The translations under genes and the position numbers were made by a program. The notes beneath the pieces were generated by a model that was not told where the DNA came from, searched no databases, and saw only the letters and a list, made by a program, of their open reading frames with translations. From Bordetella parapertussis (GTDB taxonomy: Bacteria; Pseudomonadota; Gammaproteobacteria; Burkholderiales; Burkholderiaceae_B), in assembly GCA_945882005.1 (NCBI GenBank), contig CAMCWG010000053.1, positions 1-12,886 of the forward strand: a stretch of 12,886 bases of DNA. The letters are read 5' to 3'. Of this stretch, positions 1-12,059 are shown in pieces; positions within the stretch are counted from its first letter, which is position 1, and each line of letters opens with the position of its first letter.

Positions 1-557
1 GTGGGTATCCCACCTAAGAATGACAAGATACGATTGCGTTCGATATCTAGTTTGTCTGCAAGATTGCCTTGCGTGAAGTAGGCAATCCGACCTTCATTTA
101 ATGCAACTTTTGCGCGCACAGCTTCAGGATCCGTGCATGTTGCGAGCTCGCTACGCAGCTTCTTCAAGATCTTGCCAAGCAGTCTCGGAAACACAAATCG
201 TAAAACGGGAAACTTCACCATCGCCTTGCCAAACGTAAGATCTTCGATTGCAATTTGATAAAAAGCATTGACAATTTTTACGATGTTTGCATGCTGAATA
301 GAGTCTGCATCCGCCCATGTATCGCCAGCTTTTGCGCTTGCAAAGTGAAGGATGTCCCGGCTGTCGGTGAATGTTCTTTCGGCAGTTACTAATGTGGGTA
401 CCGTCATATGTGGATTGAGTGCACGGTACCAACTAGCGAACTGTTCTTTGGCTACGTGAATGTCCATGCGTCGATTTTCAAATGGTACGCTCGCTTCAAG
501 CAGCGCTAGCCGGGCAACCATTGAGTAATACGATGACGGAGCGTTATATAGAATCAC
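1..557 (-). CDS. Glutathione S-transferase-like protein, C-terminus beyond the window
   Basis: About 185 codons are open from a GTG at 557 to the left edge with no stop. The N-terminus (VILYNAPSSYYSMVARLALL) has the thioredoxin-like beta-alpha pattern of GSTs, with the Ser/Tyr cluster at residues 8-12 where the glutathione-activating residue normally lies. T-V-P-T-L at 52-56 fits the cis-proline loop, and D-S-R-D-I at 65-69 sits where the glutathione-binding E/D-S motif lies. A helical segment follows, as in the GST C-terminal domain. A TAG lies two codons before the GTG, which fixes the start closely; no good Shine-Dalgarno is visible. It begins 7 bases after the acetyltransferase stop, so it is probably the last visible gene of the same operon. 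Cytosolic; glutathione-dependent conjugation, isomerisation or detoxification is inferred from family only. Confidence 0.8.
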   Translation of the reverse strand, partial: MILYNAPSSYYSMVARLALLEASVPFENRRMDIHVAKEQFASWYRALNPHMTVPTLVTAERTFTDSRDILHFASAKAGDTWADADSIQHANIVKIVNAFYQIAIEDLTFGKAMVKFPVLRFVFPRLLGKILKKLRSELATCTDPEAVRAKVALNEGRIAYFTQGNLADKLDIERNRILSFLGGIP

Positions 558-564
558 AGACTAT

Positions 565-1047
565 TCACAAATTCATGCCGAGAAATACCAAGTTCTGCCC
601 ACGATCTTCTTTAAAAGACTCTGTGGGCATGAATCCCAGCGAACGATATAGTTCAAGGGCTTTGGGGTTGTCTGGCCAGGTGCTAAGTACGCCACGAAAA
701 TATCCAGCTTGCTTGGCCATGCGCATTGTTTCAGTCAGAAGTATTCGGGCATAGCCTTTGCCTCTGAACGATTTGCGTACAAATAGTCGTTTAAGTTCAC
801 ACGTCCCGTCGAACTTGCTAGCCGTAAACGCCATACATCCGACCAGTATGTGGTCCTGATGCAGTTGGACAACTCCTCCAACTGGGCTGCCGTAGCGAGC
901 AGGTAAATCGTCTAGATCTTTCCAGATCGTGCTGAGTTGCGGTTGCGCTAGATCTTGCTCAGCGTACTCGTGCAGCAGTGTGTCGAAATCTGCCCAGGCC
1001 GACGTAGTACGGACTTGATCAGAGAGATAAGTAAATTGATATTGCAC
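565..1047 (-). CDS. GNAT-family N-acetyltransferase
   Basis: This is a GCN5-related acetyltransferase of about 160 residues, expected to move an acetyl group from acetyl-CoA to an unknown amine. The core fold is visible: VGCMAFTASKFDGTCELKRL (beta4-beta5), then the acetyl-CoA pyrophosphate loop RGKGYA following VRKSF, and a C-terminal NPKALELYRSLGF motif, which is highly typical. The start is uncertain. The frame opens at a GTG at 1116, with an ATG at 1107, but those starts overlap the preceding oxidase by 29-38 bases and add a tail that does not look like GNAT. The GTG at 1047 gives QYQFTYLSD at the N-terminus, the usual beta1 start, so I prefer it. None has a clear ribosome-binding site. 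It sits between the FAD oxidase and the GST-like gene; it could modify a pathway intermediate or be an unrelated passenger. Confidence 0.85.
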   Translation of the reverse strand: MQYQFTYLSDQVRTTSAWADFDTLLHEYAEQDLAQPQLSTIWKDLDDLPARYGSPVGGVVQLHQDHILVGCMAFTASKFDGTCELKRLFVRKSFRGKGYARILLTETMRMAKQAGYFRGVLSTWPDNPKALELYRSLGFMPTESFKEDRGQNLVFLGMNL

Positions 1048-1078
1048 GGTATCGCGTGTGTTTTCAGATGAATGGTAG

Positions 1079-2833
1079 TTACGATAGGGCGTCGCTGCCG
1101 ACACCATGATGCACACGGAACAGGTTTGTTGGATCGTATTTGCGTTTGATATTTAGTAAGCGCGGATAATTGCTACCCCAGAATTCCGATTGCCAGTTCG
1201 CTTCGCCAAAATGGCCTTCATTTGTATAAGAGGCACCACCTGGTGTCGCAGATTTGATGAACGCCATGGCTTGGTCGACACCTAGAGCTTCGGTGGCTGC
1301 CCAGGCCAGATCTGGCTCATGACCTGCGACGCCAGCATACTTACATTGCACCCAGCTACCGAGCGTGACAAACCCTACATTCTTAAATACAGCGGGATTC
1401 ATGGATGTCGTACGGTCGCGTTCGTGGGCCTCAGCGGGTGCGCCCGCTAAACCCTTGTTTGTCTGAAACAAAACCAGACTAGTGCGTGTCGCTTGAAAAA
1501 TAGCCTGCGCCAGCTTTCTTGTATTGCTGGGCTCCATCGCGCTCGAGGGGATCCCTCTGCCTTGATAGTTAGCCCAATAGGCACCCACTTCGGACGCATT
1601 GCCTTTCCACCAGAAATAGCCTTCTGGTACGCCAGGTCGGGTGTCCATGACGGCCCCGCCTAGTTTGGGATTCCATTTGTCTTTGAATGGCACGACTCGG
1701 TAGTTGAGCTTCACACTGAAGTCCGCTGGTCGCTCCCTTAAGGGTGCGAGAAATGGTTCCCAAACTTTCTGTGCCTGCTCGGCTGTTAAGTCCAGGAAGG
1801 CCGTGCCAACATCGATTTCATTTTTGCCCTTGACGAAGATGACCCCTTCGCCCCAGTTGCCATTATTGAGGGACGTTGCAACGAATTCGAAGTAGCGTTG
1901 AATCAGTTCTTGATAGGCTTCATCCGATGACGCGGTGATTGACCCGGAGAGCCAGCCATCGGTCGTGGGAATAGGGTGCGCGAGCAATGTCATCCTGCTA
2001 ACAATACCGAAGGTTCCACCACCTCCGCCTCGCAGAGCCCAGAACAAATCAGCGTTTTGAAAAGCGTTAGCGACGAGTACGCTGCCATCTGCGGTCACAA
2101 CTTCAAGTTCCAGCACGCCACCGGCGCCGCTACCAAATTTTTTGGAATAGGAGCCAAAGCCACCGCCAAGAGCAAAGCCACCGCAAGCACCGACGCTTGT
2201 GCAGCCACCGCCTTGTATGTAGCAGTTTGCAGCAGTCGCCGCTTGGTAGGCTTCAAGCCACCGGTTACCTGCCTTCACGTTGACGGCGCGAACGGCCTTT
2301 GTCTCTTCCGGAGCGCCTAGCGGTTTGAAGGCATCGTGAACCGTCACTCCCCGATATTTGTGTGTCCAGACCAAGAGCGAGTTCGGCGCGCTTGATCGTC
2401 CAAAGTAGTCGTGCCCAGTTCCTTTGACGACGAGTCGGACGTGATGTTCTTTAGCAAATTTCACCGCAGCGATGATGTCGCTAACACTTTCAACTGCGAC
2501 AGCATATTCGCTGGGGGTTGAATCCCAGGCCTGATACATGCCGGTTGACTGCGTTGCACCAGGTTGTTCTTCAAGGAACCAGGGGTTTGTTAATTCAGGC
2601 GGGACTGCTCCTGGCTTGAGCGTCGCCCAAGGTGCGGTGGGACGAATAAGGCGCCCACCAACTTGCTGCTGTAATGCCTCCCATGCTTTTGCAGAGGGCC
2701 ATGATGTTGTCTTGAGTGCATTGCCGGCAGCGTTCGGTTGCGCTAGGACGCGTACAGGCGAAAGTGCAAGCGCGCCAGCAAGTGCCGCAGATGAAGAGAT
2801 AAACTCACGGCGCGTCCGCTTTTTGTGTGCCAT
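1079..2833 (-). CDS. Tat-exported FAD-dependent oxidase, berberine-bridge type
   Basis: A 584-residue protein of the PCMH/FAD_binding_4 class with a BBE C-terminal motif. Residues 1-31 form a twin-arginine signal peptide (T-R-R-E-F-I at 7-12, a hydrophobic stretch, then A-Q), so it should fold with FAD in the cytoplasm and act in the periplasm. The FAD domain includes KGTGHD with His141, the residue that carries covalent FAD in this family. GGGCTSVGACGGF places Cys211 where the second flavin link lies in bicovalent BBE-type enzymes; Cys217 is also close. LRGGGGGTFGIV at 268-279 is a further FAD-domain signature. The C-terminal YPRLLNIKRKYDPTNLFR is the typical BBE tail. Such enzymes oxidise sugars, alcohols, alkaloids or aromatic alcohols using oxygen; the substrate here is unknown. 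The ATG lies 2 bases after the RraA-like stop, consistent with translational coupling. Confidence 0.92.
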   Translation of the reverse strand: MAHKKRTRREFISSSAALAGALALSPVRVLAQPNAAGNALKTTSWPSAKAWEALQQQVGGRLIRPTAPWATLKPGAVPPELTNPWFLEEQPGATQSTGMYQAWDSTPSEYAVAVESVSDIIAAVKFAKEHHVRLVVKGTGHDYFGRSSAPNSLLVWTHKYRGVTVHDAFKPLGAPEETKAVRAVNVKAGNRWLEAYQAATAANCYIQGGGCTSVGACGGFALGGGFGSYSKKFGSGAGGVLELEVVTADGSVLVANAFQNADLFWALRGGGGGTFGIVSRMTLLAHPIPTTDGWLSGSITASSDEAYQELIQRYFEFVATSLNNGNWGEGVIFVKGKNEIDVGTAFLDLTAEQAQKVWEPFLAPLRERPADFSVKLNYRVVPFKDKWNPKLGGAVMDTRPGVPEGYFWWKGNASEVGAYWANYQGRGIPSSAMEPSNTRKLAQAIFQATRTSLVLFQTNKGLAGAPAEAHERDRTTSMNPAVFKNVGFVTLGSWVQCKYAGVAGHEPDLAWAATEALGVDQAMAFIKSATPGGASYTNEGHFGEANWQSEFWGSNYPRLLNIKRKYDPTNLFRVHHGVGSDALS

Positions 2834-2835
2834 TT

Positions 2836-3510
2836 TTATTTGCGTAACATCTGTTCGTAGTTAAAGCGTCGATCAACCTCAAGGATGGACTCCCCGGAGC
2901 GCAGCGCATCGATCATGGCTAATTCTTTGGCCATGATTTCTTCGGCAGCAGTCACGACCTCCGCTAAGCGCTCGATTGGAATCACCACAACACCGTTGAC
3001 ATCAGCTACGACGACATCGCCTGGCCGAACAGGTGCATCGCCCAAGCGCACAGGAATATTCCAGGCTTCTTGCACGATACGGCCACGTGCTGTGCTCGGT
3101 ACAGTGCCACGCGCATGTACAGGAAAATCGAATGTTTCACAGGCATCCACATCCCGTACAGCACCGTCCACGACAACGCCTGATACACCTTTCTGTTTTG
3201 CACCCATCGCTAGGATTTCACCCCAGCAGTTGTGGTGTAAATCGCCCCGGTTATCGACCACGATGATATCGCCCGCTTCGCTGTTGAAGATGGCATCTAT
3301 ACCTAAGTGTGTACCCGGTGGGACTGCGCCAGCTGCAATTAAGCGAATGGTCACCGCGCGACCCACGATCTTCGTGCGGCCCCATTGCGGGATGATGCCG
3401 TGTATGGCACACCGTGGAATTCCAACCCGGTCGAGTGCATCACTCAAGTTAGACGTCGCGAGTCCATCTAGTCGGGCGCGGAATTGCGTATCGAAATCTG
3501 TAGCATTCAT
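2836..3510 (-). CDS. RraA-family protein, HMG/CHA aldolase or oxaloacetate decarboxylase-like
   Basis: A 224-residue protein of the RraA/dimethylmenaquinone-methyltransferase-like fold. Known enzymes of this fold are class II, divalent-metal aldolases cleaving 4-hydroxy-4-methyl-2-oxoglutarate or 4-carboxy-4-hydroxy-2-oxoadipate to pyruvate plus an oxo acid, often also decarboxylating oxaloacetate. Visible motifs are N-L-S-D-A-L-D (21-27), G-D-I-I-V-V-D-N (80-87), W-G-E-I-L-A (96-101) and G-A-V-R-D-V-D (116-122). Arg119 binds substrate and Asp120 the metal in characterised aldolases. Both are present, which argues for an enzyme rather than a pure RNase E inhibitor. AAGGA lies about 8 bases upstream of the ATG at 3510. 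It follows tctC by 32 bases and precedes the oxidase by 2. In this operon it probably performs the carbon-carbon cleavage or decarboxylation step. Confidence 0.9.
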   Translation of the reverse strand: MNATDFDTQFRARLDGLATSNLSDALDRVGIPRCAIHGIIPQWGRTKIVGRAVTIRLIAAGAVPPGTHLGIDAIFNSEAGDIIVVDNRGDLHHNCWGEILAMGAKQKGVSGVVVDGAVRDVDACETFDFPVHARGTVPSTARGRIVQEAWNIPVRLGDAPVRPGDVVVADVNGVVVIPIERLAEVVTAAEEIMAKELAMIDALRSGESILEVDRRFNYEQMLRK

Positions 3511-3542
3511 TACTCTGTTCCTTTGGGTGGCAACGTCGGATA

Positions 3543-4517
3543 TTAGTCAACGCGGGCGCCGGCCATCTTGATTAGATCACCCCATTTGACGATTTCTGCT
3601 TCGACTACTTTCTTGAAGTCGTCGGGGTTGCTTTTTAGTGCGGTCGAGCCTTGTTCCGCAAGCTTCTTGAGAACAGCGGGGTCTTGCAGAACGGTTTGAA
3701 CCGCATCGCTCAATTTCTGAACAATCGCTTTCGGTGTTCCGGTCGGAACAAAAATTCCGTTCCACAAAACAATTTCAAAACCAGGTAGTACCTCTGCGAT
3801 TGCGGGCACATCCGGTAGCTTTGTAATACGAGATTTAGTGGTGACCGCGAGTGGCCTGAGTTTTCCGCTATCTACAAAACCGAGAACTTCGACAAGCGGC
3901 GAGAATACCGCCTGAACTTGACCTGCTAATAAGTCATTATTTGCGAGCGAACCACCTTTGTAGGGGACATGAACCATGTCGCCGCCAACCATGTTGTTGA
4001 ACAATACGCCCGCGAGGTGGTTCGAGGCTCCGCTACCCGATGAGCCATAATTGATTGCCACTTTCTTCTGTTTCACAACTTCAACAAAGTCTTTCAGCGT
4101 TTTTGCCTGAAAGTTATTGTTGACCATTAAAACGTTGGGAATGAGAGCGACTTGGGAAACGGGTATCAAATCCTTTTGTACATTGAGTCCCATATTTTTA
4201 TAGAGGGAAACGTTTGCAGTCAACGTACTCGTATGAAGCAAAATTGTGTAGCCATCGGGGGTGGAACGTGCAACTGCCGCGGCGCCAATATTGCCACCCG
4301 CCCCGGTTTTATTCTCCACTACCACGTTTTGACCGAGAAGGCCGCCTAGCTTTTCTGCGAGCATCCGTGCGGTAATGTCGGTGCTGCCACCTGCTGCAAA
4401 GGGGACCACCATCGTGATGGGGCGCGTCGGCCAGGCTTGCGCGTGAGCGATTTCGCACAGTCCAAAGGTCAAGCTTGATACGGCAAGAACAGCTTTAATA
4501 ATTGTTGAGTGCACCAT
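3543..4517 (-). CDS. Tripartite tricarboxylate transporter-type solute-binding protein (Bug/TctC family)
   Basis: A 324-residue periplasmic binding protein. Residues 1-26 are a Sec signal peptide ending A-H-A, followed by the hallmark WPTRPITMVVPFAAGGSTDI of the Bug family. Later family motifs include NKTGAGGNIG near residue 67, YGSSGSGASNHLAG in the middle and VPYKGG near 183. Bug proteins bind small carboxylates such as tricarboxylates, amino acids or aromatic acids, and feed TctA/TctB or act in sensing. No tctA or tctB gene lies in this window, so this is an orphan receptor, which is common in Burkholderiales. AGGAG about 7 bases before the ATG is a strong ribosome-binding site. Its place between the AcnX genes and the aldolase-like gene suggests that it captures the acid degraded by the operon. 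Confidence 0.93.
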   Translation of the reverse strand: MVHSTIIKAVLAVSSLTFGLCEIAHAQAWPTRPITMVVPFAAGGSTDITARMLAEKLGGLLGQNVVVENKTGAGGNIGAAAVARSTPDGYTILLHTSTLTANVSLYKNMGLNVQKDLIPVSQVALIPNVLMVNNNFQAKTLKDFVEVVKQKKVAINYGSSGSGASNHLAGVLFNNMVGGDMVHVPYKGGSLANNDLLAGQVQAVFSPLVEVLGFVDSGKLRPLAVTTKSRITKLPDVPAIAEVLPGFEIVLWNGIFVPTGTPKAIVQKLSDAVQTVLQDPAVLKKLAEQGSTALKSNPDDFKKVVEAEIVKWGDLIKMAGARVD

Positions 4518-4555
4518 GTTTGTCTCCTAATGAATTTAAAACGACGATTAAGTGA

Positions 4556-4975
4556 TCACTTTTTAGTGACTTCTACTTTTCCTGCATCTGCATCCAGCTC
4601 GACAAAGTCGCCTGTTGCAATAACGGTTGTTGGATTTTCATTTAATCCAGCTACGACGGGTATATTCCCGATAATGGCACCAACGGTTGTAATGGGTTCT
4701 GGATTAACTTGAATAAACGCGACAGGCGCTGTTCCTCTTGAGACCATGTCGTAAATTTTGTAGGAACCACCTGTGGATCCCTTTCCGGTTAAGAAGACGA
4801 GAACTTTGCCAGAAATGTTGACGCCTTCGAGCTCGTGTCCTGGTTCAGTCACGATGCCGGTCATGTTATCTACGCCGCCGTTAAAGCTAATGGCCTCGCT
4901 GGTCACGACTGCTTCGCCGCTGGCTTTGCCTTTCACAATCTTGCGGCCTAGGAGTACTAATTTAGCTGTGCTCAT
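4556..4975 (-). CDS. Aconitase X small (swivel-domain) subunit, DUF126
   Basis: A 139-residue protein matching the aconitase X swivel domain. Evidence is the opening G-R-K-I-V-K-G-K-A-S-G-E-A (10-22), then S-F-N-G-G-V-D, the G-H-E-L-x-G-x-x-I-x-G-K-V-L stretch (46-59), and T-G-K-G-S-T-G-G-S-Y at 63-72. The Ser in this last loop (Ser67) is expected to belong to the active site formed with the large subunit. In one-piece AcnX enzymes this domain is fused to the catalytic domain; here it is a separate gene, as in two-subunit AcnX. The partner ends 5 bases upstream, with GGAGA at the junction acting as ribosome-binding site, so equal synthesis is likely. Characterised AcnX members dehydrate cis-3-hydroxy-L-proline (bacteria) or phosphomevalonate (archaea). 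Confidence 0.92.
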   Translation of the reverse strand: MSTAKLVLLGRKIVKGKASGEAVVTSEAISFNGGVDNMTGIVTEPGHELEGVNISGKVLVFLTGKGSTGGSYKIYDMVSRGTAPVAFIQVNPEPITTVGAIIGNIPVVAGLNENPTTVIATGDFVELDADAGKVEVTKK

Positions 4976-4980
4976 TATGC

Positions 4981-6222
4981 TTATCTCCAGACGCCGTCGA
5001 TCGCGGCCTGCATCACCCGCGAAAGATTGCCGTAGTGGGCTGGCAGTCCAAACTGACCCGGTGCATAAAAGGCCATTTTGGCCGAGTTGGTTGTCAAGGT
5101 CTTATAGCCTTTGTTGGGTGCAATCACGCGGCTACGCGCAAGGAAGGGACAGGTCTCGCGTACAACCACACCACCTGCTTTTTTGATCGTATCGACGTAC
5201 CCCATCTGTTCGGCCATGGCGTACATTGCACCGGCTGTCGTAACCCAGAGCGCAACGTCTTTGTGTACTTTTTTACCCTCAAGAGCCTCTGCGACCTCAC
5301 GCATTTCTTGCACTGAGGCATTCGGACAGCCGACAAGAATCCAATCTACATGGTCCGACGGCTCTTTATTCAATGCGTTCTCGGCCTGTGTTCGCTCTTC
5401 CACCCCAAAAACAAGAGTCTTCGCTGGCGCACGACCGCCGAAGGCTGCGTCGACGGTCGGGGCTTCCGGCGTGACCCCCACGGCATGAAACATACTGACT
5501 GCGCCGGAAGCGGCAAGCGCAGCGCTCAGCGCTTTGAGGTCCTCCAACGTTGGGTTGCTTGGTAGACCTGCAAAGACCGGAGTGTCTTGGCCGGCAATCT
5601 TGCCTGCAAAAAAGCCAAGCGTTCCGTAGTCAGTCATATCGCGCATGGGCGCTTCGACGTTAATCAAAAAGCTTCCATACCGGTTTTCGGGGAGGTGGAA
5701 CCCATACGCGGGTGTGCGGCCGGTGAGTGCGGTCGCCAATGCGCTTGGTCCACCCTCGCGGTTAGTTCTCGCACCGCACACTGAGTTGGCGAATACAACC
5801 GCAGAGGACTCGCCCCAAGCCATGTGTTCGCCGAAGCGCGGCATATTGCCGACAAGGTAGGGGATGCAGGTGTTACAGGTGTTGGCTCCCATACCCGCAT
5901 AGGCGCCTGTCAGACGCACCTGCAGTGTGCTGTCGGACTCTGGGATGCCGATTTCCTTCCACTGGCTTGGATCGACGGCAGTCGGATTGGTTGTCACGCG
6001 AGTGACAAACTTCCCGCCTTGCTTGCGTATGTCTTCCACAAAGCGCGTACCGGCCTCTTCGGCTACCAGCACAGAAGAGCCGGCCATGTGTACATTGTTG
6101 ACAGGAAGAAGGCGCTCTGCGCCGAAACTTTCACCTAGCGCAACCAAGATTTCCATGGCTTTTTGGACAGCTGGGCCTCTATCGCCACTCAGCATTTTTG
6201 TCTCTTCATCGGTCAGTAACAC
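4981..6222 (-). CDS. Aconitase X large (catalytic) subunit, DUF521; hydroxyacid dehydratase
   Basis: The catalytic half of a two-subunit aconitase X, about 413 residues from the chosen start. Signatures: L-T-D-E-E opening, A-M-E-I-L-V-A-L-G then A-E-R-L-L-P-V, H-M-A-G-S, and a cysteine-rich A-N-T-C-N-T-C-I-P-Y segment (113-122). These are followed by N-S-V-C-G-A-R-T-N-R-E-G, G-C-P-N-A-S (298-303), E-T-C-P and T-N-S-A-K-M-A-F-Y-A-P-G near the end. The conserved cysteines would bind iron or an Fe-S cluster. The frame opens at a GTG at 6318, but the added 32 residues do not resemble the family. The GTG at 6222 has AGGGG five bases upstream and gives the usual N-terminus; GTG 6228 is an alternative. 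First gene of the operon. Without proline-pathway genes nearby, the substrate is undetermined. Confidence 0.92.
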   Translation of the reverse strand: MLLTDEETKMLSGDRGPAVQKAMEILVALGESFGAERLLPVNNVHMAGSSVLVAEEAGTRFVEDIRKQGGKFVTRVTTNPTAVDPSQWKEIGIPESDSTLQVRLTGAYAGMGANTCNTCIPYLVGNMPRFGEHMAWGESSAVVFANSVCGARTNREGGPSALATALTGRTPAYGFHLPENRYGSFLINVEAPMRDMTDYGTLGFFAGKIAGQDTPVFAGLPSNPTLEDLKALSAALAASGAVSMFHAVGVTPEAPTVDAAFGGRAPAKTLVFGVEERTQAENALNKEPSDHVDWILVGCPNASVQEMREVAEALEGKKVHKDVALWVTTAGAMYAMAEQMGYVDTIKKAGGVVVRETCPFLARSRVIAPNKGYKTLTTNSAKMAFYAPGQFGLPAHYGNLSRVMQAAIDGVWR

Positions 6223-6630: not shown

Positions 6631-7455
6631 ATGACAAATCTTAGCACTGAAAAAGCGTCGTTTAAACACCGAATATCGAAGGTGGTCTTTGAGTCAGAGA
6701 CCTCGGCGGGCAGACGGTTCGACAAGGTATTGTTTGTCGCGATCCTTGTGTCTGTTGCCGTTGTCGTGTTAGCCAGCGTCGAATCGATTGCCAAAAAACA
6801 TGAAGACATCCTGTCTTTATTGGAGTGGTTTTTTACGATCGCCTTTACGCTGGAATATTTGATTCGTGTTTATTGCGCTCCGGATAGGCGGCAATACGTG
6901 CTGAGTTTTTTTGGTGTAATTGATCTGCTTGCGGTCGTCCCAACATACCTCGCGTTGATGTTTCCTGAGCTGCACTCTTTGATTGACGTCAGAGTGCTCC
7001 GTTTGATTCGTATCTTTCGGGTATTTAAGCTCACGGCCTATTCGTCTGAGTACACGCATTTGGCGCAAGCCTTTGCTGCCAGCAAAAGAAAGATCCTTGT
7101 GTTCCTCTCCGTCGTCCTAATGGTGGTGCTGGTGATGGGTACTTTGATGTACATCATTGAAGGACCAGAACACGGTTACACCAGCATTCCCACTGGAATT
7201 TATTGGGCCATCACAACGATGACGACAGTCGGTTTTGGTGATATCGCTCCGCAAACCGGTCTAGGTAGATTTTTGTCGTCGGTCATGATGTTGATCGGAT
7301 GGGGCACGTTGGCTGTTCCAACAGGGATTGTTACGGCTGAAATTTCTGTACATAACAAAAAAAGGGCCCATGAGCAGAAAACCTGCGCCCAATGTTCGCG
7401 CACAAACTTAAAGCTGTACGATAAGTTTTGTGGAACGTGCGGTCATAAGGTCTAG
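6631..7455 (+). CDS. Voltage-gated-type potassium channel with C-terminal zinc ribbon
   Basis: A 274-residue inner-membrane cation channel of the six-transmembrane type. The N-terminal K-V-V-F-E-S-E-T-S-A-G-R-R-F-D precedes S1 (about 31-50). S2 is near 63-82 and S3 near 91-110. S4 is R-V-L-R-L-I-R-I-F-R-V-F-K (121-133), with positive charges spaced as in a voltage sensor. S5 is near 154-175. The pore helix leads to T-T-V-G-F-G-D (198-204), the potassium selectivity filter, and S6 covers about 212-232. The tail holds C252-x2-C255-x11-C267-x2-C270, a zinc-ribbon-like knuckle. Potassium selectivity is inferred from the filter. No clear ribosome-binding site precedes the ATG, and a weak promoter at 6586-6614 would give a very short leader. 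Its stop codon overlaps that of the facing channel gene. Confidence 0.93.
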   Translation: MTNLSTEKASFKHRISKVVFESETSAGRRFDKVLFVAILVSVAVVVLASVESIAKKHEDILSLLEWFFTIAFTLEYLIRVYCAPDRRQYVLSFFGVIDLLAVVPTYLALMFPELHSLIDVRVLRLIRIFRVFKLTAYSSEYTHLAQAFAASKRKILVFLSVVLMVVLVMGTLMYIIEGPEHGYTSIPTGIYWAITTMTTVGFGDIAPQTGLGRFLSSVMMLIGWGTLAVPTGIVTAEISVHNKKRAHEQKTCAQCSRTNLKLYDKFCGTCGHKV

Positions 7456-7931
7456 GAATTTTTCCTGTGTTCGTTTCTTTTCTGACGTGCCGTATTGACG
7501 AGCTGCGACATGTTGAGCAAGACCGAAATGGACCACCCAAAGGCGATCATGCCACTCAGTGCAATGACAACCATCACGAGATCCCAGTTCAGTGGCAACG
7601 GGTTAGTGCCAACGCCTAGGGTTGTGTAGGTACTACCTGCGAAGAACATGGCTTGATGCTCGTTCGCGATCAGGCCAAAATAGTAAAGGGCATAACCCCA
7701 GAGATATATTTCAAGTAAATGCGATAGCGCCAAGATAAAGGCCGTCAAATAAAAGACAGGCGGTACCCAACCATAACGTTTGGCTTCAATGAGCGAGTCG
7801 GTAATCGTTTCGTATCCGCGTGTGACAAAAAACATATAGGTTGCATGGATGACAAGAATCAAGAAAAGCATCACCCCGCTAAAAAGAAGCGCATCCGCAT
7901 TGAAGACGAAATCTGATGAATTGGTTAGCAT
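7452..7931 (-). CDS. Small ion-channel-like membrane protein with pore-loop motif
   Basis: A 159-residue membrane protein. Hydrophobic segments lie at about 13-35, 57-87 (long, perhaps a helix plus turn) and 117-140. Between the last two, residues 93-110 look like a pore helix and filter: M-F-F-A-G-S-T-Y-T-T-L-G-V-G. This aligns with the T-x-V-G-Y/F-G loop of potassium channels, but with Leu and Val where the standard filter has Val and Tyr/Phe. The tail is short and basic. It resembles two-pore-segment channel subunits, probably working as a tetramer, with an extra N-terminal helix. Selectivity cannot be stated. The Shine-Dalgarno is poor: AAGG lies 13 bases before the ATG. It points tail-to-tail at the six-segment channel and shares CTAG with its stop. 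Confidence 0.8.
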   Translation of the reverse strand: MLTNSSDFVFNADALLFSGVMLFLILVIHATYMFFVTRGYETITDSLIEAKRYGWVPPVFYLTAFILALSHLLEIYLWGYALYYFGLIANEHQAMFFAGSTYTTLGVGTNPLPLNWDLVMVVIALSGMIAFGWSISVLLNMSQLVNTARQKRNEHRKNS

Positions 7932-8112: not shown

Positions 8113-8817
8113 TTAGTTTGGTGCCAGATCAAACACTAAAACTTCAGCGTGCTCACCGTTTGAGATTTCAAGCTCTTCTTCATCTGAGATCAGCAATGCA
8201 TCGCCGCCATTGATTGTTAGGCCGTTAACTTGAAGTGAACCGGCAATCAAATGTACGTATGCCTTGCGTCCTTTAGAGATGCTGAGCTTAGCGCTGTGCC
8301 CAGAATCAAATATGCCAACATACAGCTTAGCGTCGGCATGGATAGTGACTGAACCGAGCTCTCCGGTAGATGAAGCAACTAGACACAGCGCACCTTGTTT
8401 CTTCTGTTGCGGAATTGTTTTTTGTTCGTAACCGGGGGCAATGCCTTTAATGGAGGGTTCAATCCAGATTTGCAAAAAATGTGTCTGTTGATTGGCCGCA
8501 TGATTGAACTCACTGTGCACGACGCCTGTGCCAGCGCTCATGCGCTGAATGTCCCCCGGAGGGATCCCTTTGATATTGCCAAGACTGTCTTGGTGTGCAA
8601 GCTCGCCTGACAGGACGTAACTAATGATCTCCATGTCGCGGTGACCGTGTTGTCCAAAGCCGCGGCCTGGCTCGATTCTGTCCTCATTAATCACCCGCAA
8701 GTTACCCCAGCCCATAAATTTTGGGTCGTAGTAATTGGCAAAAGAAAAGGAGTGATAGCTTTTCAGCCATCCATGGTCGGCATATCCGCGCTCATCAGAT
8801 TTTCGAAGCTCGAGCAT
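8113..8817 (-). CDS. Pirin family protein (bicupin)
   Basis: From the ATG at 8817 the protein has 234 residues, the usual pirin length. It opens with M-L-E-L-R-K-S-D-E-R-G, followed by the pirin signature HGWLKSYHSFSFANYYDP and L-R-V-I-N-E-D-R. Metal ligands are visible in the first cupin domain: His57 and His59 in H-G-H-R-D-M-E, then His101 and Glu103 in V-V-H-S-E-F. The second cupin half, about 130-234, is more divergent and lacks a metal set. The frame extends to an ATG at 8958, but those 47 residues are not pirin-like. AAGGA stands seven bases before the 8817 ATG, so that start is preferred. Bacterial pirins include quercetin 2,3-dioxygenases and regulators of central metabolism; which applies here is unknown. 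It is divergent from the APC permease. Confidence 0.93.
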   Translation of the reverse strand: MLELRKSDERGYADHGWLKSYHSFSFANYYDPKFMGWGNLRVINEDRIEPGRGFGQHGHRDMEIISYVLSGELAHQDSLGNIKGIPPGDIQRMSAGTGVVHSEFNHAANQQTHFLQIWIEPSIKGIAPGYEQKTIPQQKKQGALCLVASSTGELGSVTIHADAKLYVGIFDSGHSAKLSISKGRKAYVHLIAGSLQVNGLTINGGDALLISDEEELEISNGEHAEVLVFDLAPN

Positions 8818-8865
8818 AGAGAGATCCTTTTGCTTAAAAACATCAACAGTTAGCTTGTTGCATGA

Positions 8866-8871
8866 ATTATA
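8866..8871 (-). promoter_or_regulatory. Candidate -10 box for the pirin gene
   Basis: On the minus strand this reads TATAAT, a perfect sigma-70 -10 hexamer, about 48 bases before the preferred pirin ATG. The -35 region is poor: TTGCAC lies 20 bases upstream, which is longer than the ideal 17. It is supported mainly by the -10 match and by its position. Confidence 0.3.
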
Positions 8872-8936
8872 TTGGTCCGCATTCATACTAAGTGCAATGC
8901 CTTCAACTTTTGGATGAAACGCTTGCACGTTTAGTA

Positions 8937-8953
8937 GCAAATTGTTAATTTGC
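8937..8953. promoter_or_regulatory. Perfect 17-bp palindrome between pirin and permease, candidate operator
   Basis: GCAAATT, a GTT spacer and AATTTGC form a perfect inverted repeat of seven-base arms. It lies 49 bases before the permease ATG and upstream of the pirin promoter candidate, in a 185-base divergent intergenic region. The short A/T-rich spacer fits a dimeric helix-turn-helix repressor site better than a terminator, since no U-tract follows on either strand. Confidence 0.4.
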
Positions 8954-9002
8954 GGCATGGTTTTTTCGCGCGGTTAGCCCAGACTGGATTGGTGGTAATG
9001 AC

Positions 9003-10394
9003 ATGTCACAAGAAAAAGGTTTGGCAAGTGGGTCCCTGGGCACCCTAGAGTCTGCCGTCATGGGTGTTGCGGGCTCGGCGCCTGCCTTTAGTGTCGCGGT
9101 CACAACAGCAGTGATTGTGGCCTCCGTGGGCGTTCTGTCGGTAGGAAGTGTCCTGTATTGCGGCCTGATCATGTTTGGCATTTTGTTCACGTTCATTAAT
9201 CTGAACAAAATGCAGCCGCATGCTGGTGCGACGTACGCTTGGGTTGGGGCAGTCTTCGGATCTAAATGGGGATTCTTTGCGGGTTGGGGTTTGTTGGTTG
9301 CATCGGTTGTTTTTATGGTGTCCGCCACGATCCCCGCGGCCACGTCGACGCTAAAGATTTTCTCAACGCTTGACTGGGTCGATGCGAGCAAAATCGAGGA
9401 CACCGCTTGGGTGACCTGTATCGCTGCAATATGGCTAACGCTGGTTACTGCAGTGGTGACAAAAGGGATTAAGCACGCCAGTTACGCGCAGTTGATTCTT
9501 ACCGTGATCGAATCAACGATCGTCGTGGCGTTGATTATTGGTGCGTTTGTCGAGTACGGATCAAAGCCGGCACATCCGCCATCGTTCGTTTGGATCTCAC
9601 CGTTTTCGTTTACTCCGGAAACCTTTGCAACTGGCGCGTTAACAGCCATCTTTTTTTATTGGGGCTGGGATGTAACGATGAACTTAGGTGAGGAAACTAA
9701 AGGGGGAGAGCCTTTGCCATCAAGCATGGGCGCGTTTTGGTCAATGGTTAACCTGATGTTGTTTTACATCATCATCGTTATTGTGGTGTTGATTGTGTTG
9801 ACTGATGAAGAGATTGCAGCCGCAAACACGAATGTTCTTTATGCCGTCGCAGACAAGTTATTCCCCCAGCCCTGGAGCTACCTGGCTGTGCTATCAACGA
9901 TCTTGTCGACAATCGGAACAATTGAAACGCAAATTCTCCAATTCAGTCGCACGTTGTTTGCAATGTCGCGTGACCGCGTTCTGCATATTCGCTACAGCAA
10001 GATTCATCCAGAATGGCAGACACCTTGGGTTGCGACTTTTGTAATTTGGTTCCTTGGCGTCGTGCTTTTGTTCGGCTCCTCCTATCTGCCTTCAGTAAAA
10101 GACATTTTGGATAAGTCAGTATCCGCAATCGGCTTTCAGATTTGTTTTTATATGAGCTTAGCTGGCTTCGCTTGCGCTTGGTATTACCGTGGCTTATGGA
10201 GCGGAAGCTTTAAAACATCGCTGACGCATATTTGGTGGCCGTTACTAAGCGCAACGTTTATGGTGTTTATTGCTGTCTTGAGCGCTGTATCGTTCGATCT
10301 TATAACCAACATCATTGGAATGGGTGGTTTGCTAATTGGATTCATTCCTTTGTGGTTGAATCGCAGCGCGAAGCCCACACAGCGGGTTGGTTAG
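9003..10394 (+). CDS. APC-superfamily amino acid permease
   Basis: A 463-residue inner-membrane transporter with about 12 hydrophobic helices. The N-terminus holds L-E-S-A-V-M-G-V-A-G-S-A-P-A-F-S, where G-S-A-P-A is the unwound TM1 substrate-binding stretch of APC-type permeases. N-K-M-Q-P-H-A-G-A-T-Y-A-W-V-G further on corresponds to the family's conserved G-G-x-Y-x-W segment. Another conserved feature is Y-W-G-W-D-V-T-M-N-L-G-E-E-T in the sixth-helix region, followed by a charged loop. S-R-T-L-F-A-M-S-R-D-R-V-L is the usual A-x-S-R-D loop. It is expected to import amino acids or amines with protons or in exchange; specificity is not readable. Its last 63 bases overlap the 3' end of the convergent racemase gene. 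It is a plausible uptake partner of the amidase cluster. Confidence 0.93.
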   Translation: MSQEKGLASGSLGTLESAVMGVAGSAPAFSVAVTTAVIVASVGVLSVGSVLYCGLIMFGILFTFINLNKMQPHAGATYAWVGAVFGSKWGFFAGWGLLVASVVFMVSATIPAATSTLKIFSTLDWVDASKIEDTAWVTCIAAIWLTLVTAVVTKGIKHASYAQLILTVIESTIVVALIIGAFVEYGSKPAHPPSFVWISPFSFTPETFATGALTAIFFYWGWDVTMNLGEETKGGEPLPSSMGAFWSMVNLMLFYIIIVIVVLIVLTDEEIAAANTNVLYAVADKLFPQPWSYLAVLSTILSTIGTIETQILQFSRTLFAMSRDRVLHIRYSKIHPEWQTPWVATFVIWFLGVVLLFGSSYLPSVKDILDKSVSAIGFQICFYMSLAGFACAWYYRGLWSGSFKTSLTHIWWPLLSATFMVFIAVLSAVSFDLITNIIGMGGLLIGFIPLWLNRSAKPTQRVG

Positions 10395-10985
10395 CGGAGT
10401 CCTGCCGTTTTTAACGAGCACTGCCGCACCTGCCATCGATGCTTGCGCCAACGCAACGACGTTGGCGCCCTCCAAATAGGCGTTGTCTGCTGCAGCTGCA
10501 ATTGCTAAAAGATACCCCTTCAAGTCCCCAGCTTTAAACAAATCCCAAATGCTTGGGATGAGTTGGATGTCAACGGTTGAATCTTTACCAGCATTCGCGC
10601 TAAAAAATAGATCAGATGTCGGCTTAATAGTGGTCTCAACAGCGCAAAGGACGACGATGCGACCGCCCTGCAATATTGCTTGCTCTGCTAAGGCCTCATC
10701 AACACGGATCACGCGAGTGCCCGTCATGGTAGACATTCCGCCAACCGAGGGGCCTAGCGTGGAGCAGGTCAAGACGACTGCATCATGATCATTACAAAGG
10801 CTTTGAAGAACAGTTTGCGTTTGTGCGGTGATTTCAGGGGTTAAGCCTCCCACACTTTCCGCTGCGGCTAATAAATCAGACCTGACCGTATGCGTTAAGT
10901 GAAGCGATTCCATGCCTAGCCCCATCACTGCCTCTTCAAAGACAGTGATGTTGCTGCTGGCAGTGTGTAAACAAGCGATGCGCAT
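10332..10985 (-). CDS. Asp/Glu racemase superfamily protein lacking the second catalytic cysteine
   Basis: A 217-residue protein of the Asp/Glu/hydantoin racemase fold. The first half has D-A-V-V-L-T-C-S-T-L-G-P, with Cys74 at the first catalytic position. In the second half the motif that usually carries the second cysteine reads V-V-A-L-A-Q-A-S-M-A-G, with Gln181 in its place. The C-terminal P-L-T-N-P-L-C-G-L-R-A-A fits the family's closing segment. Two-base racemisation with paired cysteines is therefore unlikely; a one-cysteine isomerase, decarboxylase-like or lyase role is possible. Cys5, Cys114 and Cys203 are other cysteines, not at the expected site. It starts 15 bases after the amidase stop, so it belongs to that operon. 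Its end overlaps the permease by 63 bases on the opposite strand. No clear Shine-Dalgarno. Confidence 0.88.
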   Translation of the reverse strand: MRIACLHTASSNITVFEEAVMGLGMESLHLTHTVRSDLLAAAESVGGLTPEITAQTQTVLQSLCNDHDAVVLTCSTLGPSVGGMSTMTGTRVIRVDEALAEQAILQGGRIVVLCAVETTIKPTSDLFFSANAGKDSTVDIQLIPSIWDLFKAGDLKGYLLAIAAAADNAYLEGANVVALAQASMAGAAVLVKNGRTPLTNPLCGLRAAIQPQRNESN

Positions 10986-11000
10986 ACGGACTGGTGTTGA

Positions 11001-12059
11001 CTACTTGAGCAGAGGGATCAAGCGTAACGTTTTGCTGGTCATGTCCGCCTCTGTAAAGCCAATGCTCAACACACCAGGATTTTCGAAAGAGCGGATGTTG
11101 TAGGTTTTGGTCTTCAGGTTCGCGACAACGGTCCACTCTGTGAACTCATAGGAATTCACTCCACCACCATAGCCGCTTGAGCTATCGAGATGAATCGCAC
11201 CAAACGGAATATCAAAGTTGTTCATGATGTGCCAAGCGCGACGCTCTTGCAGGTCTGTTGTCGCTGCAGGGGTATTCATGACAATGGTGGACGCACGCAC
11301 AAATCGGTCTGGGCTTAAAAAGCTACCTGGAAGGCCATGCAGACCGTTACCAGAGCTCGCTGCTAAAAATTTCTGCTTGTTGTATTCCATCGGTTTTTTA
11401 TCGGTACCGCTTAAATTTGCGTAATTGCCTATATTTTGTAGGTGCCAAGCGAACGCAGGGTCGTTTGTCATCGTGCCGATAATGTTGTCGGTCATGACGA
11501 GCTTACCGTCTAAATATTCAACCACCAAGCTTCCACCCGAGCTGTCGTGCAACGTCATACGTGATTTAGCAACACCGCCCCATTCTTTGAGTGGCGAACT
11601 GTTCACAAACATTTTAGGAAGAGCATCTTTGACTTCAGCAACATTCGCGAAATTCGTTAAGACATAGACGAGCAGCTGTTGCGATGCGATGCTGTTGGCT
11701 GAGTCCGCTTGAGATGGAGTCTGGTATTGAGCAGTATTGGGTGCATTAAGTAAGCCACCTACAAGGCCGGCCTCGTTCATGCCGTCAACGTAAACAGGCA
11801 GGCCTAGCACGTTTGCGCCGATAGCCGCATACTTGGACACCCAGTTTTTGCCAGTTCCTGCGGCGCCATCAATGCCAACGCCCTGAAGCGAGTAGCCTCT
11901 GGGCATGATCATAATCGCCGACTTCAGTGGTATGCCGAATTCCATCGTACGGCCATACACCCGCCCATTGTCCGTGCCATTCAAGACAATAGACGTGCAA
12001 GCCTGCGCCAAAGTACTGCCGAAGAACGTGAGTAGAACAAACCAGATTTTTAGTCTCAT
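11001..12059 (-). CDS. Secreted linear amide C-N hydrolase (choloylglycine hydrolase/penicillin V acylase family)
   Basis: A 352-residue Ntn-hydrolase. Residues 1-20 form a Sec signal peptide ending A-Q-A, and the next residue, Cys21, opens C-T-S-I-V-L. Cleavage thus exposes the N-terminal cysteine nucleophile of the family. Supporting residues are Arg37 in G-R-T-M-E-F-G, D92-G-M-N-E-A-G-L, the T-N-D-P-x-F-x-W-H-L motif (198-207) and R252/R256 in S-P-D-R-F-V-R-A-S. The family hydrolyses amide bonds in bile salts, penicillin V or N-acyl homoserine lactones; periplasmic Gram-negative members often act on acyl amides. The substrate here is unknown. AGGGGT lies seven bases before the ATG. It follows LysE by 46 bases and precedes the racemase-like gene by 15, which suggests release of an amino acid or amine from an amide. 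Confidence 0.93.
   Translation of the reverse strand: MRLKIWFVLLTFFGSTLAQACTSIVLNGTDNGRVYGRTMEFGIPLKSAIMIMPRGYSLQGVGIDGAAGTGKNWVSKYAAIGANVLGLPVYVDGMNEAGLVGGLLNAPNTAQYQTPSQADSANSIASQQLLVYVLTNFANVAEVKDALPKMFVNSSPLKEWGGVAKSRMTLHDSSGGSLVVEYLDGKLVMTDNIIGTMTNDPAFAWHLQNIGNYANLSGTDKKPMEYNKQKFLAASSGNGLHGLPGSFLSPDRFVRASTIVMNTPAATTDLQERRAWHIMNNFDIPFGAIHLDSSSGYGGGVNSYEFTEWTVVANLKTKTYNIRSFENPGVLSIGFTEADMTSKTLRLIPLLK

What the first reader, a model, noticed from the sequence alone, without database searches (positions are those of the whole stretch)
1..6222. Unassigned catabolic operon pairing two-subunit aconitase X with an RraA-like aldolase and an exported FAD oxidase
Seven same-strand genes with short gaps encode AcnX large and small subunits, a Bug binding protein, an RraA-fold aldolase with intact Arg119/Asp120, a Tat-exported berberine-bridge-type oxidase, an acetyltransferase and a GST-like protein. 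Known bacterial AcnX enzymes dehydrate cis-3-hydroxy-L-proline, but no pyrroline-carboxylate reductase or proline racemase gene is here. My inference is that the oxidase makes an acid in the periplasm, the Bug protein binds it, AcnX dehydrates a hydroxy-acid intermediate, and the RraA-like enzyme cleaves or decarboxylates it. This would be a new substrate class for AcnX.
Basis: partly seen in the sequence, partly recalled or inferred. Interest (0 to 1): 0.72.

Follow-up and report, generated by a model that had tools for sequence, protein, structure and literature searches.

The report
Aconitase X–RraA aldolase catabolic operon
A bacterial operon pairs an aconitase-like enzyme of unknown substrate with an aldolase-like enzyme, and the same pairing recurs in distantly related bacteria, which suggests an undescribed pathway for breaking down an organic acid.

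Summary
The seven same-strand genes are there as described (the GST-like gene is cut by the window edge). The AcnX belongs to a supported clade apart from cis-3-hydroxyproline dehydratases and mevalonate-5-phosphate dehydratases. It keeps the catalytic Ser, Glu, Lys and Tyr and the three [4Fe-4S]-type cysteines, but lacks the residues that hold the proline ring and amine, and one Asn that holds the phosphate. The robust finding is AcnX plus RraA: an RraA gene lies within 10 kb in 21 of 25 clade loci (0.7 expected; three of four misses are contig ends) against 0 of 24 loci of other AcnX clades. It spans Pseudomonadota and Bacillota and several RraA subfamilies. A Bug protein is usual in Burkholderiales. 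The exported FAD oxidase is not core (1 of 25). In other lineages this AcnX sits near PrpD, aconitase, homoaconitase-like, isocitrate-dehydrogenase-like or UbiD genes, which points to citrate-like acids. Best reading: a hydro-lyase for an acyclic beta-hydroxy di- or tricarboxylate, coupled to RraA cleavage or decarboxylation; exact substrate unknown. AcnX types IIc–f of unknown function are already in print, so this is a new variant of a known kind, with a testable partner.

The parts
4981..6222 (-). AcnX large subunit (PF04412); core enzyme, Cys119/Cys299/Cys358, Glu138, Lys382, Tyr386
4556..4975 (-). AcnX small (swivel) subunit (PF01989); Ser67 is the predicted general base, Asn32 and Gly69 are clade-specific
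3543..4517 (-). Bug/TctC periplasmic binding protein (PF03401), presumed uptake
   Evidence: same subfamily (58-95%) beside AcnXs in 18 of 25 relatives' loci
2836..3510 (-). RraA-fold protein (PF03737), Glu98/Arg119/Asp120; conserved partner of this AcnX clade
1079..2833 (-). Tat-type exported FAD oxidase of BBE family; local addition, not part of the conserved core
565..1116 (-). GNAT acetyltransferase, upstream start uncertain; 68% relative after RraA in Zwartia hollandica L040 only
1..557 (-). GST-like protein (GST_N), cut by the window edge; no relative in the 25 loci

Best explanation
The core is AcnX large + AcnX small + RraA, with a Bug/TctC binding protein for uptake. The AcnX is most likely a [4Fe-4S] hydro-lyase that dehydrates (or hydrates) an acyclic beta-hydroxy di- or tricarboxylic acid, citrate-like rather than hydroxyproline or mevalonate phosphate: Ser67 of the small subunit takes the alpha proton, and the open iron with Glu138 and Lys382 takes the beta hydroxyl. 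The RraA-fold enzyme then acts on the product, or on a compound in equilibrium with it, as a metal-dependent retro-aldolase or beta-keto-acid decarboxylase that yields pyruvate or a similar 2-oxo acid. The FAD oxidase, GNAT and GST genes are local additions. SHOWN by computation: gene identities, a separate AcnX clade, kept catalytic residues, AcnX-RraA linkage. INFERRED: the class of acid, the order of steps, the uptake role of Bug. UNKNOWN: the exact substrate and the direction.
For: Separate clade of 24 rows, SH-aLRT 99 in two quick trees. Cluster and catalytic residues as in TkAcnX; proline-specific Asp203/Trp35/Thr72 are Ala47/Asn32/Gly69 and phosphate-specific Asn53 is Val53 (contact lists from PMC8184944). 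RraA within 10 kb in 21 of 25 loci against 0.70 expected, 0 of 24 loci of other AcnX clades. Several RraA subfamilies stand beside the same AcnX. L107, a 53% relative, has AcnXL-AcnXs followed by three RraA genes. Citrate-type neighbours elsewhere: PrpD family in L031, TcuA-like and AcnA in L028 over curated cut-offs, isocitrate/homoisocitrate-dehydrogenase relatives in L039 and L107, homoaconitase/isopropylmalate-isomerase-type subunits in L039 and L107 over subfamily cut-offs.
Against: No substrate evidence at all; neighbours are indirect. The citrate-type neighbours come from single loci of Hoeflea, Paenibacillus and two Bacillota-side genomes, not from the window's own relatives, where I saw none within 10 kb. 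Asn79, one of the two phosphate side-chain ligands, is kept. The even-scatter null for RraA ignores that catabolic genes cluster, and 7 of the 24 control loci are shorter than 11 kb. L023 has no RraA within 10 kb (about 11 kb away), and the 48% relative L108 has none in 12.4 kb. Several islands also hold aminotransferase, 5-oxoprolinase-like, TPP-decarboxylase and sugar-transporter genes, which fit other chemistries.
Confidence: 0.5

Rival explanations
1. AcnX is a 2,3-dihydroxy-acid (tartrate-like or sugar-acid) dehydratase that makes a 2-oxo acid, which RraA then cleaves or, if it is oxaloacetate, decarboxylates.
For: Same C2-H/C3-OH chemistry; RraA relatives are named CHA aldolase/oxaloacetate decarboxylase; L039 and L107 dehydrogenases also match tartrate dehydrogenase models (below cut-off); a sugar-type ABC transporter stands after RraA-cupin in Hoeflea L028.
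Against: The Hoeflea transporter starts 346 bp further on with its own LacI-type regulator and may be a separate operon; no sugar-acid enzyme recurs among the neighbour families that I annotated.
Confidence: 0.2
2. [quoted passage not shown]
For: CHA is a beta-hydroxy tricarboxylate of the right shape for AcnX (own chemistry reasoning); type-a RraA in Cupriavidus and L107 comes near the CHA-aldolase cut-off (171-172 against 179 bits).
Against: No LigB-type dioxygenase lies near AcnX in any of 20 genomes; 4 of the 20 have no match and a fifth none over the cut-off. The window's own RraA scores 104 bits against 179. One paper holds both 'oxalomesaconate' and 'aconitase' and its title is on another subject.
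Confidence: 0.1
3. [quoted passage not shown]
For: Best NCBIfam model of the large subunit is the cis-3-hydroxyproline dehydratase NF051439 (311.6 bits); best PDB match is TkAcnX 7cnr (280.7 bits).
Against: Far below the NF051439 cut-off of 700; separate clade; landmark residues differ; no proline racemase or pyrroline-carboxylate reductase among the window proteins scanned.
Confidence: 0.05
4. One reading: the exported FAD oxidase makes an acid in the periplasm, Bug binds it, AcnX dehydrates it and RraA cleaves it.
For: All four genes are in one likely operon in the window.
Against: The FAD oxidase is in 1 of 25 relatives' loci and missing in Zwartia hollandica and Z. panacis, whose AcnX, Bug and RraA are 76-96% identical to the window's.
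Confidence: 0.07
5. The island degrades a lactam or substituted glutamate: a 5-oxoprolinase-like enzyme opens it, an aminotransferase makes the 2-oxo acid, RraA cleaves it; AcnX serves a side branch.
For: LamB/YcsF and carboxyltransferase-domain genes lie near RraA.b/RraA.c in 4 of 20 islands examined (11 of them with wider flanks), and a class I/II aminotransferase cluster is in the same four.
Against: Only 4 of 20 islands; none seen in the window, Zwartia, Paenibacillus or L107; AcnX lacks the amine-binding residues of type I.
Confidence: 0.08

Closest known systems
Type IIb AcnX, mevalonate 5-phosphate dehydratase (TkAcnX 7cnr/7cns; ApPMDh)
   Same: Two subunits; Cys110/Cys283/Cys342 set, Glu129, Ser130, Ser131, Lys361, Tyr365, Asn79, Ala47, Gly48 and Ser50 all match
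   Different: Asn53 is Val53, Val49 is Ser49; small-subunit Leu27 and Val64 are Asn32 and Gly69; another clade; neighbours are RraA/Bug and not UbiD plus isopentenyl phosphate kinase
[quoted passage not shown]
   Same: Catalytic Ser, Glu, Lys and Tyr kept
   Different: Trp35, Thr72 and Asp203 absent; Cys at the type I Ser449 place and no Cys510; two-residue longer loop at 49-53; another clade
AcnX types IIc-f of unknown function
   Same: Bacterial two-subunit AcnX without the landmark residues of either activity, as PMC8184944 section 14 describes them
   Different: I could not map the clade to one of the letters, since the supplementary figure was not seen; the RraA partner is not mentioned in the passages I saw
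HMG/CHA aldolase (RraA fold, 3noj)
   Same: RraA fold match (57 bits); Arg123/Asp124 equivalents Arg119/Asp120
   Different: Glu98 in place of Asp; NCBIfam CHA-aldolase models well below cut-off (104 of 179, 94.5 of 304.5 bits)

Membership tests
AcnX family | PF04412 and PF01989 matches above cut-off in paired subunits | tested here: met
   474.5 (31.5) and 100.9 (27) bits
AcnX family | Catalytic Ser of the small subunit; Glu, Lys and Tyr of the large subunit | tested here: met
   Ser67, Glu138, Lys382, Tyr386
[quoted passage not shown]
   Ala47, Asn32, Gly69
[quoted passage not shown]
   AtAcnX and S. meliloti pSymB copy in another group
[quoted passage not shown]
   311.6 against 700 bits, large subunit alone; the model is for the fused form
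Mevalonate 5-phosphate dehydratase (AcnX IIb) | Asn53 and Asn79 side chains that hold the 5-phosphate | tested here: not met
   Val53 (not met), Asn79 (met)
Mevalonate 5-phosphate dehydratase (AcnX IIb) | Groups with TkAcnX | tested here: not met
   TkAcnX groups with Chloroflexota rows
Either characterised AcnX activity | Turnover of the substrate | not testable with these tools
   needs an assay
[4Fe-4S] AcnX | Three Cys at the TkAcnX ligand positions | tested here: met
   Cys119, Cys299, Cys358; the cluster itself needs spectroscopy
HMG/CHA aldolase (RraA fold) | RraA-fold domain with the Arg-Asp pair | tested here: met
   PF03737 131.9 bits; Arg119/Asp120
HMG/CHA aldolase (RraA fold) | Curated CHA-aldolase models over cut-off | tested here: not met
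   NF006731 104 of 179, TIGR02798 94.5 of 304.5 bits
HMG/CHA aldolase (RraA fold) | Aldolase or decarboxylase activity | not testable with these tools
   needs an assay
AcnX types IIc-f | Position in the published subclass tree | not tested
   published supplementary tree not available here

The most novel reading that the evidence does not exclude
A third functional kind of aconitase X, a hydro-lyase for citrate-like hydroxy di- or tricarboxylates, drives an undescribed catabolic pathway with RraA-family aldolases. It would give a function both to an orphan AcnX subfamily and to several orphan RraA subfamilies, and the same core has spread between Pseudomonadota and Bacillota.
Probability: 0.42. 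Interest if true: 0.68.

Novelty: new variant of a known kind. Interest (0 to 1): 0.55.

Why it matters
Several bacterial AcnX subfamilies have no known substrate (PMC8184944, PMC10040528), and many RraA-fold proteins carry names such as RNase regulator without a tested role. A conserved AcnX-RraA pair turns two annotation problems into one experiment. The residue table tells this clade from the two characterised activities; database names such as 'Phosphomevalonate dehydratase' and '3-isopropylmalate dehydratase large subunit' on some members are probably wrong.

Tried and rejected
Rejected: the FAD oxidase, GNAT and GST as conserved pathway members; a gallate/protocatechuate context through LigB; a ligand-telling riboswitch at the operon (gathering threshold: nothing in the window; the two hits in the seven sources are in L031 at 19537 and L039 at 14400, not before AcnX). 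I first took two recurring ORF families in L039, L042, L044 and L045 (about 420 and 165 aa) for TRAP-transporter subunits, and both notebook entries say so; searches show homoaconitase/isopropylmalate-isomerase-type subunits. L107:19407-19999 was not scanned; by BLAST it is a 32% relative of a Bug protein.

Led nowhere: literature searches for the pairing. One search listed 13 papers, none of whose titles is on AcnX; two searches listed one each; ('AcnX' with 'aldolase') none. The plasmid records behind L064, L065 and L067 hold no gene table for the stretch. My first gene caller was poor on GC-rich DNA and was replaced; it still missed some genes (for example the small subunit in L028, found). 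In one search the column labels are off by one residue, since the copied TkAcnX and AtAcnX stretches were numbered with different offsets; I used the motif strings printed beside them. Structure prediction and fold search were not run: a single chain would not show a pocket made by two subunits.

Rows dropped: from the first AcnX tree, rows with an aligned length under 330, and L001-L009, L018 and L068-L077 as repeats or fragments; from the second, L016 and L022; from the RraA tree, ORFs under 190 aa. The 24 control loci leave out L010-L017, whose flanks are only 1.5 kb. The trees are quick ones with SH-aLRT and no bootstrap; the program warned of long branches.
Full report
WHAT IS THERE. The minus strand of 1-6222 encodes AcnX large and small subunits, a Bug/TctC protein, an RraA-fold protein, a BBE-type FAD oxidase, a GNAT and a truncated GST-like protein, with gaps of 5, 38, 32 and 2 bp, an overlap of up to 38 bp, and 7 bp. 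The window's own assembly is not held; the nearest held genome shares 40% of sampled 31-letter words. By AcnX the nearest named organisms are Zwartia hollandica and Z. panacis (Alcaligenaceae).

HOW COMMON IS IT. It is sporadic: 8 of 32 genus-mates including the nearest genome (genus membership as listed), 2 of 399 genomes of the order sample (the nearest genome is one of them), and 24 loci (L019-L041, L043; 57-99% identical) among the 45 that a scan of one genome for each of 84,980 species brought in (that scan needs an exact peptide pattern and finds close relatives only). Plasmid L064 adds one. Later samples gave 3 of 341, 4 of 398, 1 of 104 and 1 of 248 genomes at E 1e-110, each with its centre genome counted. 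Members at 81-86% occur in Achromobacter, Variovorax, Ramlibacter, Cupriavidus, Comamonas, Paraburkholderia, Bradyrhizobium, Hoeflea and Paenibacillus; with the patchy distribution this suggests horizontal transfer.

WHICH AcnX IS IT. In a quick IQ-TREE of 53 rows the window falls in a clade of 24 (SH-aLRT 99), apart from AtAcnX with the S. meliloti pSymB copy (type I), from a group of Kribbella, Acidimicrobiia and others (IIa-like; the label is mine), and from TkAcnX with three Chloroflexota rows (IIb). A second tree of 54 rows gives a clade of 24 again (SH-aLRT 99). Cys119, Cys299 and Cys358 match the TkAcnX cluster ligands; type I has Ser at the second place and an extra Cys. Glu138, Ser139, Lys382, Tyr386 and the small-subunit Ser67 are kept. 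The proline-specific Asp203, Trp35 and Thr72 are Ala47, Asn32 and Gly69. The phosphate ligand Asn53 is Val53, though Asn79 is kept. Contact lists are from PMC8184944 (section 14 and two parts of the main text read; passages). So by sequence it is neither known activity. Internal control: the Chloroflexota rows keep the IIb residues, and in L046 and L048 AcnX lies with UbiD and with an isopentenyl phosphate kinase over its curated cut-off.

THE CONSERVED PARTNER. With an HMM of local RraA proteins, 21 of 25 clade loci have an RraA gene within 10 kb, 20 of them within 2.8 kb. From whole-genome PF03737 counts 0.70 such loci are expected under even scattering; with one locus per genus, 11 of 12 against 0.33. 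That null ignores gene clustering, so the control counts more: 0 of 24 loci of other AcnX clades hold RraA (358,992 bases; 7 of the 24 are under 11 kb). Of the four misses, L022, L038 and L043 end with the contig; L023 has RraA genes about 11 kb away. The RraA proteins belong to several subfamilies: the window type, also in Paenibacillus; types b and c in many Burkholderiales; a CHA-aldolase-like type a; and another in Hoeflea and Bradyrhizobium. The more distant L108 (48%) has none in 12.4 kb. So the link holds for this clade and its sister L107.

OTHER NEIGHBOURS. A Bug protein of the window's subfamily (58-95%) lies beside AcnXs in 18 of 25 loci; L031 has a 28% relative. FAD oxidase 1 of 25 (L019), GNAT 1 of 25 (L040), GST 0 of 25. 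A LysR gene stands divergent before AcnX in 15 of the 24 loci but not in the window. In L021 and L040 genes for a two-subunit TPP decarboxylase (sulfopyruvate-decarboxylase-like, under the cut-offs) follow RraA, after a GNAT gene in L040; such a pair lies in 8 of those 24 loci. Four of 20 islands also have 5-oxoprolinase-like genes and an aminotransferase. Outside Burkholderiales the neighbours are enzymes of citrate-like acids: PrpD family right after the second RraA gene in L031; TcuA-like and AcnA, both over curated cut-offs, with a relative of that PrpD by clustering, in L028; isocitrate/homoisocitrate-dehydrogenase relatives in L039 and L107, under the equivalog cut-offs; homoaconitase/isopropylmalate-isomerase-type subunits in L039 and L107 over subfamily cut-offs; UbiD in L107 and L108. 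In the outer clade, L044 and L045 have that isomerase pair right after AcnX, and L044 a CoA-transferase and an HMG-CoA-lyase relative.

MECHANISM. Shown: gene identities, clade, catalytic residues, linkage. Inferred: AcnX removes (or adds) water at the alpha and beta carbons of an acyclic hydroxy acid with at least two carboxylates. Reasons: the machinery for carboxylate and hydroxyl is kept; amine-binding residues are lost and phosphate binding is altered; polar Asn32 stands where the known enzymes have Trp or Leu; the loop that gives main-chain contacts to the phosphate is not shortened as in type I; and other lineages have citrate-type neighbours. RraA then cleaves or decarboxylates; its Arg-Asp pair is kept, and in the P. 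putida aldolase R123K lowers kcat with HMG 181-fold (PMC5065237, passages). The substrate is not known. CHA is chemically attractive, but no LigB dioxygenase lies near AcnX in any of 20 genomes, and 4 of the 20 have none.

NOVELTY. PMC8184944 (section 14) and PMC10040528 (passages) state that AcnX types IIc-f have no known function, and the latter names a Cupriavidus basilensis AcnX of unknown function, so an orphan AcnX is not new in itself. I found no paper on an AcnX-RraA pair, which search an open-licence library; I saw listings, and passages or sections of the papers named here. Most subscription papers are not held, and PMC5527387, on a two-subunit AcnX, was not held. I rate it a new variant of a known kind: a known superfamily with a recurrent partner that I have not seen described, and a probable third substrate class. 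On checking, confidence in the best explanation was set at 0.5, since the citrate-type neighbours rest on few loci outside the window's relatives.

Noticed in passing
L048:8638-12585 and L046:6474-12653: Chloroflexota MAGs carry AcnX of type IIb residues near UbiD and an isopentenyl phosphate kinase (over cut-off), like the archaeal modified mevalonate pathway that PMC10040528's abstract calls unique to archaea.
   Followed up: partly
window 6631-7931: Two ion-channel-like genes (Ion_trans; Ion_trans_2, the latter just under its cut-off) stand upstream of AcnX in the window and some Zwartia-like relatives, where other relatives have a LysR regulator.
   Followed up: partly
window 8113-8958, 9003-10394, 10332-10985, 11001-12059: A pirin, an amino-acid-transporter-like protein, an unassigned ORF that overlaps the transporter's 3' end on the other strand, and a choloylglycine-hydrolase relative below the NCBIfam cut-offs.
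   Followed up: no
L027:12792-13982, L030:12752-13942, L064:14798-15982: A beta-propeller 'Lactonase'-type protein with a lipoprotein-like leader stands between Bug and RraA in Cupriavidus.
   Followed up: partly
L078, L086, L088, L036: LamB/YcsF, carboxyltransferase-domain, biotin-carrier and biotin-carboxylase genes and an aminotransferase near further RraA genes: a 5-oxoprolinase-like module of unknown substrate.
   Followed up: partly
L027:13999-16054, L030:13994-15983: RraA genes of types c, b and a stand in a row, in L030 with stop and start overlapping, which raises the question of mixed RraA oligomers.
   Followed up: no
L021, L022: Two MAG records titled Bordetella parapertussis hold AcnX 95-96% identical to the window's and group with Zwartia; the titles look like misassignments.
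   Followed up: no
L044:9582-15185: An outer AcnX clade (Bacillota, Desulfovibrio) with Asn and Gly at the same two small-subunit places; in L044 AcnX is followed by isomerase-type subunits, a CoA-transferase and an HMG-CoA-lyase relative.
   Followed up: partly
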